DNA from: Candidatus Dormiibacterota bacterium
GTDB taxonomy: Bacteria; Chloroflexota; Dormibacteria; Aeolococcales; Bog-877
Direction: 5' to 3'
Length of the DNA: 50,000 bases
Assembly: GCA_027306885.1 (NCBI GenBank)
Contig: DAHUYV010000019.1
Coordinates: 1-50,000 of the forward strand
Positions 16,009-34,641 of the stretch are shown here, in pieces. Made by a program: the position numbers and the translations under genes. Positions within the stretch are counted from its first letter, which is position 1, and every line of letters starts with the position of its first letter. The notes under the pieces are model-generated. The model made no database searches, was not told the origin of the DNA, and saw nothing but the letters and a program-made list of their open reading frames with translations.

Positions 16009-16959
16009 ATGGCCAGATCCTCTCCGGGGCGGCTGGAGATCGTCCCCAGCCTGCCCGACCGCGGGGTGCTCGACCTGATCGGGAACACCCCTCTGCTCCG
16101 GCTCCGACTGTTCGAGGAGTCGGCGCCGCGGCTGCGCGTCTACGCGAAGGCCGAGTTCGCCAACCCCGGGGGCTCGGTGAAGGACAGGCCCGCGCTCTGG
16201 ATGCTTCGGGAGGCCCTGCGCAGCGGCGAGCTCAGCCCGGGGAAGACCATCCTGGACAGCACCAGCGGCAACACCGGTGTGGCCTACGCCCTCCTGGGGG
16301 CGGCCCTGGGCTACCCCGTGACTCTCGTGGTGCCTGCCAACGTCACGGAGGAGCGCAAGCAGCTGATGTCGGCCTACGGGGCCGAGCTGGTGTTGAGTGA
16401 CCCGCAGGAGGGTTCCGACGGCGCCATCCTCCTCTGCCGCGAGTTGCGGGCGCAGGATCCGGAGCGGTACTTCTGCCCCGACCAGTACAACAATCCCGCC
16501 AACTGGCAGGCCCACTACCACACCACCGCCAACGAGATCTGGGACCAGACTGACGGGGAGGTGACCCACTTCCTCGCCGGGCTGGGCACCAGCGGGACCT
16601 TCGTCGGCACCATCCGGCGGCTGAAGGAGTTGAACCCGGACGTCGTCGGCATCAGCCTCGAGCCTGATGACTCCTTCCACGGGCTGGAGGGCCTGAAGCA
16701 CATGGCGTCGGCGATCGTGCCCGGCATCTACGACCCCTCTCTGGCCGACCGCCATCTGCTCGGCCCCACCGGCGAGTCCTATGATCTGGTCCGGCGGTTG
16801 GCCCGCCAGGAAGGCGTGATGGCGGGCCACTCCTCGGGGCTGGCTCTCTGGGGCGTGTCACAGCTGGTGGGCGAGGGCCTGCGCGAGGGCGTCGTGGTGG
16901 TCATCTTCGCCGACGGTGGCGGGCGCTACCTGAGCGGCGGGTTGTACGGAGGCGGCTGA
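16009..16959 (+). CDS. cysM: Cysteine synthase, CysM-like (probably CysO-dependent)
   Basis: A 316-residue PLP enzyme of the fold-type II cysteine synthase family. PLP Lys58 is in GGSVKDRPA, the substrate loop STSGNTG is at about residues 84-90, and the phosphate-binding loop is GLGTSGTF (about 188-195). It sits 5 bp before a JAMM peptidase. The pairing is known from the mycobacterial Mec-CysO-CysM system, in which CysM uses O-phosphoserine and a thiocarboxylated CysO. From memory of that family, a basic residue after the EP loop binds the phosphate; here LKHM offers a Lys at about that place. The CysO-like carrier lies at 33073. Start chosen by the leaderless -10; a longer frame overlapping the opposite gene was rejected. 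Confidence 0.88.
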   Translation: MARSSPGRLEIVPSLPDRGVLDLIGNTPLLRLRLFEESAPRLRVYAKAEFANPGGSVKDRPALWMLREALRSGELSPGKTILDSTSGNTGVAYALLGAALGYPVTLVVPANVTEERKQLMSAYGAELVLSDPQEGSDGAILLCRELRAQDPERYFCPDQYNNPANWQAHYHTTANEIWDQTDGEVTHFLAGLGTSGTFVGTIRRLKELNPDVVGISLEPDDSFHGLEGLKHMASAIVPGIYDPSLADRHLLGPTGESYDLVRRLARQEGVMAGHSSGLALWGVSQLVGEGLREGVVVVIFADGGGRYLSGGLYGGG

Positions 16960-16964
16960 TCCTC

Positions 16965-17453
16965 ATGGCCGGTCGAAGCTTGCAGTTCCTTGAGCCGATG
17001 TTCGAGCGCATGCGGCAGCTCGCCGAGGCCGCCTACCCGTACGAGGGCTGCGGAGTGCTGGTGGGCAGGCGCGGACCGGAGGCGGCGGTGGTCACCGAGG
17101 TGGTGGAGGGCCGCAACCTGGTCACCGAGCGGCGGCGAGATCGTTACGAGCTCGACCCCCGGGACATCATCACCGCCGAGCGCAGCGCCCGGAATCGGGG
17201 AGAGGAGGTGCTGGGCTTCTTCCACACCCACCCCGACCACCCGGCCCGGCCCAGCCAGTTCGACACCGACCACGCCTGGCCCAAGTACCACTACGTCGTG
17301 ATCGCCGTGGATGACGGGCGGATGGCCGGGGCCACGGCCTGGGAGCTGGAAGGGCCCGAGGGCGACCAGCGGTTCGAAGAGCGGCCTCTGGCGACCGGTG
17401 AAGGTACCGCCGCGGGCTATAATCCGCCCGGCGTTGTGGTGGAGATCCAATGA
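16965..17453 (+). CDS. mec: JAMM/MPN (M67) metallopeptidase, Mec-like
   Basis: A 162-residue zinc peptidase with a full JAMM motif: Glu27 in YPYEGCGVL, His87 and His89 in FFHTHP, and Ser97 and Asp100 in PSQFDTDHAWP. In Mycobacterium the homologue (Mec, Rv1334) cleaves the CysO-cysteine adduct to release cysteine. Location 5 bp after cysM supports the same job. Here the CysO-like carrier also ends GG-Arg-Pro, so this peptidase might additionally expose its diglycine (inference). The last codons overlap secG as ATGA, and a TATAAT box for secG lies inside its 3' end. Confidence 0.88.
   Translation: MAGRSLQFLEPMFERMRQLAEAAYPYEGCGVLVGRRGPEAAVVTEVVEGRNLVTERRRDRYELDPRDIITAERSARNRGEEVLGFFHTHPDHPARPSQFDTDHAWPKYHYVVIAVDDGRMAGATAWELEGPEGDQRFEERPLATGEGTAAGYNPPGVVVEIQ
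17418..17423 (+). promoter_or_regulatory. Consensus -10 box (TATAAT) inside the JAMM gene, for secG
   Basis: A perfect TATAAT in GC-rich coding DNA, 26 nt before the secG ATG. No clear -35 box. Confidence 0.4.
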
Positions 17454-32605: not shown

Positions 32606-33010
32606 GTGAGCTACCAGCCTGAGCCGGAGACCGGTCGCAACCCCCCTCCGCTCTGGGTCACGACCGGGGTGGGCTTCGACGGCTATCGGGTCGTCCGGCA
32701 GCTGGGGGTGGTCCGTGGCCTCATGATCCGTTCGCGGTCGGTGGTGGGGAACATCGGGGCCGGCTTCCAGCAGTTCGTGGGGGGCCGGCAGACCGTCTTC
32801 ATGAAGATGAGCGACCACGCCCGCCAGGAGGCCTACGACCTCATGGTCCAGCACGCAGCCGCGCTTGGTGCCAACGCGGTCCTCTCCATGCGCTACGACT
32901 CCAACGAGCTGGCCGCCGGGGTCAGCGAGATCCTCGCCTACGGCACCGCCGTGGTGATCGCGGCCGAGGGGCAGGCGGGGGCCCCCGCCGCACCGCCGCC
33001 GCCGGCCTGA
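32606..33010 (+). CDS. YbjQ/UPF0145 family (heavy-metal-binding domain) protein
   Basis: A 134-residue protein with the YbjQ-type fold: VVRQLGVVRGLMIRSRSVVGNIGAGFQQFVGG-like start, then ARQEAYDLMVQHAAALGANAVLSMRYDSNEL and EILAYGTAVVI. The family is pentameric in known structures, but its role is not settled despite the metal-binding name. N- and C-terminal Pro/Ala tails are extra. Start fixed by the leaderless -10. Confidence 0.83.
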   Translation: MSYQPEPETGRNPPPLWVTTGVGFDGYRVVRQLGVVRGLMIRSRSVVGNIGAGFQQFVGGRQTVFMKMSDHARQEAYDLMVQHAAALGANAVLSMRYDSNELAAGVSEILAYGTAVVIAAEGQAGAPAAPPPPA

Positions 33011-33049: not shown

Positions 33050-33072
33050 GAGATCGTCATCCAGGAGGACAC

Positions 33073-33354
33073 GTGAGCACCAAGATCCGCGTACCGAGCC
33101 CGCTGCGGCAGCTGACCGGCGGTCAGTCCGACGTCCAGGTCGAGGGCTCCACGGTGCGCGAGGCGCTGGCCAGTCTGGAGGACAGCTTCCCAGGGTTTGC
33201 CACCCGGCTCTTTGAGCCCGACGGCAGCCTGCGCCATTTCGTCAACGTCTACCGCAACGACGAGGACATAAGAACGGCGGGAGGACTGGATGCCGCCCTC
33301 AGCCCCGGCGACGACCTGAGCATCGTGCCCGCCGTGGCGGGAGGGCGACCATAG
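33073..33354 (+). CDS. cysO: CysO-like ubiquitin-fold sulfur carrier protein with Gly-Gly-Arg-Pro tail
   Basis: A 93-residue beta-grasp protein of the MoaD/ThiS class, closely following mycobacterial CysO: IRVPSPLRQLTGGQSDVQVEG, HFVNVYRNDEDIRTAGGLDAAL, and the C-terminal IVPAVAGG. In CysO the last Gly becomes a thiocarboxylate that gives sulfur to CysM. Here Arg-Pro follows the GG (residues 90-91), so the diglycine must be exposed by proteolysis before activation. That is a plausible task for the JAMM peptidase at 16965. The carrier is separated from cysM-mec by 16 kb. No MoeB-like activating enzyme is in the window. Confidence 0.88.
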   Translation: MSTKIRVPSPLRQLTGGQSDVQVEGSTVREALASLEDSFPGFATRLFEPDGSLRHFVNVYRNDEDIRTAGGLDAALSPGDDLSIVPAVAGGRP

Positions 33355-33378
33355 CCGTCTGGGTCCAGGGATAGCGCG

Positions 33379-34641
33379 GTGCGGCTGCTCGCGGGCACCG
33401 GCTGGGGAGGCCGGCCTGGGGCCGCGGACGGGGCTGCCCCTGTGTCCGAGCCACCGGCTGCGGGTGCCCCGCCAGATCTCGCTGAGGCGCCGACCTGGGC
33501 GCGGCCGGTCCTCCTGACCCTGGCCCGACTGCGCGCCCCTCGCACGGTGGTCGCGGTGGCGATGAGTGGGGGCGTGGACAGCTCGGTGGCGGCAGCTCTC
33601 CTCGTGGCCGCGGGGGTGGGCGTGGTCGGTGTGACCATGCGCCTGTGGGGCGAGGAGGAGCTGGAGCGAGGGGAGGGGGGGTGCTGCTCCCTGGACGCGG
33701 TGGAGGACGCCCGCCGGGTCTGCGGCCGCCTGGGCATCGCCCACTATGTCCTCAACCTGCGTGAGCACTTCCATTCCACCGTGGTCGGCGACTTCCTGAG
33801 CCAGTATCGCGATGGGCTGACCCCGAACCCCTGCGTCCGCTGCAACGAGCGGGTCAAGTTCGATGAGCTCTACCGGCGGGTGCGGCTGGTGGGGGCGTCC
33901 CACCTGGCCACCGGTCACTACTGCCGGCTGACCGAAGCCGGCGACGGGAGCCTGGTGATGCGGCGCGCCCGGGACCAGCGCAAGGACCAGTCCTACACCC
34001 TGTACCGGACTCCCGACGAGGTGCTGCGCCGGTGCGTCTTTCCTCTCGGCGAGCTGGAGAAGCCCCAGGTGCGGGAGCTGGCCCGGACCTGGGGGCTGGC
34101 GGTGGCCACCAAGCCCGACAGTCAGGAGCTCTGCTTTGTCGGTGGCGGTGACCACCGGGGAGTGCTGGCCCGCGACCTCGCCGGCAGCTACGCCCCGGGT
34201 CCGATCCTGGACCTGGAGGGAAGGGAGGTTGGCCGGCATCAGGGCGTGCCTTTCTACACCGTCGGGCAGCGTCACGGCCTGGAGCTGAAGGTCACCCGGC
34301 CCGACGCGGAGCCCCAGTACGTCGTCAAGGTGGAGTCGAGGGCCAACACCGTGCGGATCGGTCCGTGGCGCGCGCTGCTGACCCCGTCCTGCAGCCTGAG
34401 CCGGCTCGTGGTCCTCAGCCCGCGGCCGGCGGGGGAGGGCGCCAACGCCCTCGCCCAGCTCCGGGCCCACGGGCGGCCGGTTCCGGCGCTCTGGTGGCAG
34501 CTTCCCGGCGGGCGGGCGCGGGTGGAGTTTCGCGAGCCGCAGGCCGGCGTCTCTCCCGGGCAGTCCCTGGTCCTCTACGATGGTGACCAGGTGGTGGCGG
34601 GCGGGGAGGTTGAAGTCGAGAGCGGAGCGGAGGCCCGCTGA
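33379..34641 (+). CDS. mnmA: tRNA-specific 2-thiouridylase
   Basis: A 420-residue enzyme that thiolates uridine 34 of tRNAs for Lys, Glu and Gln. Its PP-loop is AMSGGVDSSVAAALL, the catalytic Cys pair lies in LTPNPCVRCNERVKFDEL and SQELCFVGGG, and VGQRHGLEL opens the C-terminal part. The first 60 or so residues before the PP-loop are an Ala/Pro-rich extension not usual for MnmA; a later start could be real, but no better start signal is seen near residue 60. It sits 24 bp after the CysO-like carrier. Confidence 0.92.
   Translation: MRLLAGTGWGGRPGAADGAAPVSEPPAAGAPPDLAEAPTWARPVLLTLARLRAPRTVVAVAMSGGVDSSVAAALLVAAGVGVVGVTMRLWGEEELERGEGGCCSLDAVEDARRVCGRLGIAHYVLNLREHFHSTVVGDFLSQYRDGLTPNPCVRCNERVKFDELYRRVRLVGASHLATGHYCRLTEAGDGSLVMRRARDQRKDQSYTLYRTPDEVLRRCVFPLGELEKPQVRELARTWGLAVATKPDSQELCFVGGGDHRGVLARDLAGSYAPGPILDLEGREVGRHQGVPFYTVGQRHGLELKVTRPDAEPQYVVKVESRANTVRIGPWRALLTPSCSLSRLVVLSPRPAGEGANALAQLRAHGRPVPALWWQLPGGRARVEFREPQAGVSPGQSLVLYDGDQVVAGGEVEVESGAEAR

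What the first reader, a model, noticed from the sequence alone, without database searches (positions are those of the whole stretch)
33073..33354. CysO-like sulfur carrier ends GG-Arg-Pro and needs trimming
Seen: the last residues are AVAGG followed by Arg-Pro, then a stop. Known: CysO, MoaD and ThiS must end in a free GG to be adenylated and thiocarboxylated; mycobacterial CysO ends directly at GG. Inference: a protease must remove two residues first. The JAMM peptidase beside cysM at 16965 is the natural candidate, which would give it a second, activating role besides releasing cysteine.
Basis: partly seen in the sequence, partly recalled or inferred. Interest (0 to 1): 0.6.

Follow-up and report, generated by a model that had tools for sequence, protein, structure and literature searches.

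The report
Sulfur carrier with disposable two-residue cap
A small bacterial protein that carries sulfur for making cysteine is encoded with two extra residues over its working end, so a protease must clip it first; such caps and the likely protease are already known elsewhere, and here the cap turns out to be a short, freely changing, throw-away piece across a whole bacterial class.

Summary
The ORF at 33073-33354 encodes a CysO-type sulfur carrier ending ...VPAVAGG-Arg-Pro-stop. Its closest solved structures are Mycobacterium tuberculosis and Amycolatopsis CysO, which stop exactly at GG. It is not a sequencing error: all six nearest relatives (same genus or family) also carry residues after GG. 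They do not conserve Arg-Pro. Of 143 stand-alone carriers read in this phylum, all keep GG; 89 have a cap, with 53 different caps in all. The capped state changed at least 28 times on the tree. Caps are short (median 2 residues, against about 30 codons to the next in-frame stop). This fits a disposable propeptide.

The JAMM peptidase beside cysM (16965-17453) is the only clear JAMM in this genome, and cysM-JAMM is paired throughout the class. In relatives cysM, JAMM, carrier and E1 form one cluster, sometimes with the carrier fused to its E1. Carriers next to a JAMM gene are capped in 34 of 35 cases, others in 55 of 108. JAMM trimming is therefore the best explanation, but cleavage was not shown. 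Published precedents exist: QbsD for capped carriers, and DRJAMM for the MoaD-MoaE fusion. I rate it a new member of a known kind.

The parts
33073..33354 (+). CysO-type sulfur carrier precursor, 93 aa, GTG start
   Evidence: AF2 pLDDT 91 with Foldseek top hits CysO 4n6e_B, 3dwg_C, 3dwm_A
33063..33068 (+). Shine-Dalgarno-like AGGAGG before the GTG start
   Evidence: Sequence
33340..33345 (+). Gly90-Gly91 codons, the future C-terminus
   Evidence: Invariant GG in all 143 stand-alone carriers read
33346..33351 (+). Cap codons Arg92-Pro93, predicted to be removed
   Evidence: residues 90-93 have pLDDT below 50; unconserved in relatives
16009..16959 (+). cysM-type cysteine synthase (ATG 16009), 5 nt before the JAMM gene
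   Evidence: PALP 217.7 bits, TIGR01138 cysM 339.8 bits, under that model's cut-off; start
16965..17453 (+). JAMM (Prok-JAB) metallopeptidase, Mec-like; predicted cap remover and cysteine releaser
   Evidence: Prok-JAB 90.3 bits; motif HTHPDHPARPSQFD, E27/H87/H89/S97/D100 invariant in 18 homologues; fold matches bacterial MPN proteins and P. furiosus JAMM1
33379..34641 (+). mnmA, tRNA 2-thiouridine synthase; downstream neighbour across much of the class (annotated start probably too early)
   Evidence: NF001138 375.5 bits; neighbourhood
32606..33010 (+). YbjQ-family gene upstream of the carrier; conserved neighbour in genus and family only
   Evidence: Pfam YbjQ_1 101.6 bits

Best explanation
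The gene encodes the inactive precursor of a CysO-type sulfur carrier. The two residues after GG (Arg-Pro) are a disposable cap that keeps the C-terminal glycine from being adenylated. The JAMM metallopeptidase encoded with cysM cuts after Gly91 (inferred). A ThiF-rhodanese E1 encoded elsewhere in the genome then adenylates and thiocarboxylates the freed GG (inferred from family). CysM uses the thiocarboxylate to build cysteine on the carrier, and the same JAMM can cut the resulting GG-Cys bond to release cysteine (inferred from Mec). Chemically both JAMM steps are the same reaction, hydrolysis of the bond after GG, so one enzyme with loose preference for what follows GG would suffice.
For: GG is invariant in 143 of 143 stand-alone carriers, but the residues after it are not: 89 capped, 53 distinct caps, at least 28 changes of capped/uncapped state. 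Caps are far shorter than stop loss would give (median 2 against 29.5 codons), so they look like short propeptides. The modelled tail is disordered. Only one Prok-JAB passes the cut-off in this genome, with all JAMM motif residues. cysM lies just upstream of JAMM in 32 of 34 class loci. In other lineages cysM, JAMM, carrier and E1 are one cluster, or cysM-JAMM-[carrier::E1 fusion], where cleavage after GG is needed to free the carrier. Carriers with a JAMM gene within 2.5 kb are capped in 34 of 35 against 55 of 108 (Fisher p 1.4e-7; by genus 18 of 19 against 39 of 62, p 0.0086). Literature: capped carriers need a protease, QbsD the example (PMC6006322); DRJAMM cleaves MoaD-MoaE leaving a C-terminal Gly (PMC8832034); Mec+ hydrolyses CysO-Cys (PMC3227635).
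Against: No cleavage was shown. In this class the carrier is not next to JAMM (about 16 kb apart in the window, 15-17 kb in four of five congeners, another contig elsewhere) but near mnmA. G282 and G056 have capped carriers and no detected JAMM (91% and 83% complete). Nine class carriers have naked GG although eight of those genomes still have a JAMM, so the cap is dispensable. The phylogeny-aware pair test could not decide (2-6 independent pairs), because JAMM adjacency changes only about six times.
Confidence: 0.72

Rival explanations
1. The cap is removed, but by another peptidase (a carboxypeptidase or a housekeeping protease), and the JAMM only releases cysteine.
For: Capped carriers occur in two genomes without a detected JAMM (G282, G056). 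In the class the carrier is not clustered with JAMM. The protease that opens Mtb MoaX was reported as unidentified although Mtb has Mec (PMC4326299).
Against: Both JAMM-less genomes are incomplete. JAMM-carrier clusters are nearly always capped (34 of 35), and carrier::E1 fusions sit beside JAMM. A C-terminal Pro resists many carboxypeptidases (general knowledge).
Confidence: 0.17
2. The tail is retained and the protein acts without a free GG, for example as a non-catalytic binding partner, or in tRNA thiolation together with the adjacent mnmA.
For: The carrier lies near mnmA in many class members, and its cap does not need to be any particular sequence.
Against: GG is invariant in all carriers while the next residue is not, which is hard to explain unless GG becomes the terminus. 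Close relatives end at GG exactly. The linkage to mnmA is loose, with 1-2 kb between them in family f4.
Confidence: 0.08
3. The Arg-Pro codons are an assembly or sequencing artefact and the real gene stops at GG.
For: The window comes from a draft metagenome assembly (170 contigs).
Against: All six nearest relatives carry caps in independent assemblies, with different DNA after GG.
Confidence: 0.03

Closest known systems
CysO of Mycobacterium tuberculosis (CysO-CysM-Mec-MoeZ cysteine pathway)
   Same: Best sequence match (E 9e-21) and among the top fold matches; cysM-JAMM gene pair; GG at the same alignment position
   Different: CysO ends at GG as encoded; here two residues follow, and the carrier gene lies about 16 kb from cysM-JAMM
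Capped sulfur carriers with a JAMM: QbsE/QbsD, PtmS2 (cap MV) and PtmS3 (cap C) with JAMM PtmS1
   Same: GG followed by one or two residues; a JAMM peptidase is the (predicted or tested) cap remover (PMC6006322)
   Different: Those serve thiocarboxylate natural products and PtmS2 is clustered with its JAMM; here the cap is Arg-Pro, the likely use is cysteine, and clustering is seen only in relatives
DRJAMM with the MoaD-MoaE fusion of Deinococcus radiodurans
   Same: A JAMM opens a carrier after GG (PMC8832034); the window's genome also has a MoaD-MoaE fusion
   Different: There the cap is a whole MoaE domain and the product makes molybdopterin
Operon type 4c of Iyer, Burroughs and Aravind 2006 (ThiS/MoaD, E1-rhodanese, JAB, cysteine synthase)
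   Same: Same four parts, reported in Acidobacteria and Chloroflexus; those authors proposed that JAB frees the Ubl C-terminus where the Ubl is fused (PMC1779556)
   Different: In Dormibacteria the cluster is split into cysM-JAMM, carrier and E1; short caps are not mentioned in the passages read

Membership tests
CysO sulfur carrier | ThiS/MoaD beta-grasp fold closest to CysO | tested here: met
CysO sulfur carrier | Encoded C-terminus is a free Gly-Gly | tested here: not met
   GG is followed by Arg-Pro; GG itself is present and invariant
CysO sulfur carrier | Partners CysM, Mec-type JAMM and MoeZ-type E1 in the genome | tested here: met
   cysM-JAMM in the window; rhodanese-ThiF E1 on contig C97; rhodanese is N-terminal, unlike MoeZR
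CysO sulfur carrier | Becomes a C-terminal thiocarboxylate used by CysM | not testable with these tools
   Needs biochemistry
Capped sulfur carrier (QbsE/PtmS2 type) | One to several residues after the conserved GG | tested here: met
Capped sulfur carrier (QbsE/PtmS2 type) | JAMM peptidase encoded in the same genome | tested here: met
Capped sulfur carrier (QbsE/PtmS2 type) | JAMM gene clustered with the capped carrier | tested here: not met
   About 16 kb apart in the window; clustered in other Chloroflexota and in fused form in Acidobacteriota/Armatimonadota
Capped sulfur carrier (QbsE/PtmS2 type) | Cap removed by the JAMM | not testable with these tools
   Needs in vitro cleavage
JAMM/MPN+ peptidase (Mec type) | Glu plus HxHx7Sx2D metal site and MPN fold | tested here: met
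JAMM/MPN+ peptidase (Mec type) | Encoded with cysM | tested here: met
   Window, and 32 of 34 class loci
TtuB-like tRNA thiolation carrier | Partner TtuA sulfurtransferase | not tested
   Only the mnmA neighbourhood was seen; TtuA was not searched

The most novel reading that the evidence does not exclude
One Mec-like JAMM, encoded with cysM, is the general GG-maturase of Dormibacteria: it removes short caps from the cysteine carrier, splits the MoaD-MoaE fusion that is present in most of the class, and releases cysteine from carrier-Cys. The cap would then be a sequence-free propeptide, kept short and gained and lost freely.
Probability: 0.45. Interest if true: 0.5.

Novelty: new member of a known kind. 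Interest (0 to 1): 0.38.

Why it matters
It extends capped, protease-opened sulfur carriers from natural-product pathways to a probable primary cysteine pathway in an uncultured class. It gives a simple genomic sign of processing: GG invariant, next residues free and short. It makes the question whether one JAMM both activates a carrier and releases its product directly testable with two small proteins. Cap removal of sulfur carriers also parallels ubiquitin precursor processing.

Tried and rejected
Sequencing error: rejected by relatives. Conservation of Arg-Pro: rejected, caps are unconserved. JAMM presence or absence by genome as a test: weak, since 245 of 301 genomes have a Prok-JAB; capped 86 of 135 with JAMM against 3 of 8 without, p 0.15. 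Phylogenetically independent pairs: too few. First regex for tails missed most carriers and was replaced by an HMM. Functional link to mnmA: conserved neighbourhood but loose, left open. Papers on QbsE and HcyS themselves are not in the library searched; their role is taken from PMC6006322 or from memory.

Full report
What is there. The ORF at 33073-33354 (+) encodes 93 residues from a GTG start with a good ribosome-binding site and ends GGA GGG CGA CCA TAG: Gly-Gly-Arg-Pro-stop. It belongs to the ThiS/MoaD family. By sequence and by predicted fold its closest solved relatives are CysO proteins: M. tuberculosis 3dwg/3dwm and Amycolatopsis 4n6e. The CysO alignment ends at GG, so two residues are extra here. 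The window lies in a 2.26 Mb draft genome whose closest relatives in public data include Candidatus Dormiibacterota metagenome assemblies.

Not an artefact, and not conserved in sequence. Five congeners read GG-Leu-Arg and one same-family genome reads GG-Gly-Pro-Gly-Leu-Asp. Other class members end in GG, GRS, AQ, G, GGRR, LSSAG, RTGTGR, RRRA, RRA, RRRP, EVAS, AFQP, RSA, R, T, or nothing after the GG. I read 143 stand-alone carriers from a sample of 301 genomes of the phylum. GG is present in every one; 89 have a cap. There are 53 distinct caps. On the carrier tree the capped state changes at least 28 times and the cap itself at least 73 times. If caps arose only by loss of a stop codon they would run about 30 codons to the next stop; instead the median is 2 (p 2e-31; 8e-22 on distinct caps; neither value corrects for relatedness). 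The cap thus looks free in sequence but held short. A second, much longer form exists: in Acidobacteriota, Armatimonadota and some Chloroflexota the carrier is followed by a whole ThiF-type E1 in one chain.

Who removes it. The genome has one Prok-JAB above the cut-off, the gene at 16965-17453, five bases after cysM. It has the full JAMM metal site and the MPN fold. cysM-JAMM is paired in 32 of 34 class loci examined. In this class the carrier is not beside them: it sits near mnmA. In other Chloroflexota cysM, JAMM, carrier and E1 are neighbours, and in Acidobacteriota/Armatimonadota the order is cysM, JAMM, [carrier::E1]. Carriers within 2.5 kb of a JAMM gene are capped in 34 of 35 cases against 55 of 108. 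Corrected to one vote per genus this is 18 of 19 against 39 of 62 (p 0.0086). A stricter test with phylogenetically independent pairs had too few pairs. Two genomes with capped carriers had no detected JAMM, both incomplete.

Mechanism. Best supported: precursor, cap removal by JAMM after Gly91, activation by the rhodanese-ThiF E1 on contig C97, use by CysM, release of cysteine by JAMM. Shown here: the cap, its lack of conservation and its shortness, the intact JAMM site, and the gene associations. Inferred: every catalytic step. Some caps are a single Cys (G038, G065); such a precursor is by composition the same as the carrier-Cys product that Mec cleaves, which makes a shared enzyme easy to imagine.

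What is known. Iyer et al. 2006 described this four-gene neighbourhood and proposed that JAB enzymes free the Ubl terminus where the Ubl is fused to other proteins (PMC1779556). Dong et al. 2018 describe sulfur carriers capped with MV or C and state that capped carriers require a protease, with QbsD as the example (PMC6006322). DRJAMM cuts MoaD-MoaE (PMC8832034). MoaX of M. tuberculosis must be cut after Gly82 by a protease then unidentified (PMC4326299). Mec+ releases cysteine from CysO (PMC3227635). So the principle is known; a capped CysO-type carrier in Dormibacteria, and the statistics of caps, are what is added here. I did not find the cap statistics in the papers read, but the library lacks most subscription journals.

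Extension. The same genome has a MoaD-MoaE fusion, found unbroken in most class members with a match (48 to 50 of 55; split in five). With one JAMM per genome in nearly all class members searched, a single peptidase may mature two carriers and release cysteine. This is inference.

Noticed in passing
L030 (G000 contig C97:4151-5335): The E1 has its rhodanese domain in front of ThiF, the reverse of mycobacterial MoeZR; this order matches full length in families f1-f3 of the class, while family f4 matches mostly over ThiF alone.
   Followed up: partly
L027:1480-2118 (G000 contig C84): MoaD-MoaE fusion with internal GG, class-wide; split into two genes in five genomes and interrupted by TGA in two (G261, G095).
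   Followed up: partly
L028:1498-2376, minus strand (G000 contig C146): ThiS fused to the C-terminus of ThiE (thiamine phosphate synthase), ending in a free GGG.
   Followed up: no
L015, L016, L018-L023: Carrier fused to its own ThiF-rhodanese E1, directly after cysM and JAMM, in Acidobacteriota and Armatimonadota.
   Followed up: partly
L145 (G038), L128 and L129 (G065): Carriers whose cap is a single Cys, so the encoded precursor equals the carrier-cysteine product.
   Followed up: no
window 33073-34641: Carrier next to mnmA in many Dormibacteria; possible link to tRNA thiolation, untested.
   Followed up: partly
L087 and L088 (G103): Two near-identical carrier loci on two short contigs of one genome, same cap RTGTGR.
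   Followed up: no
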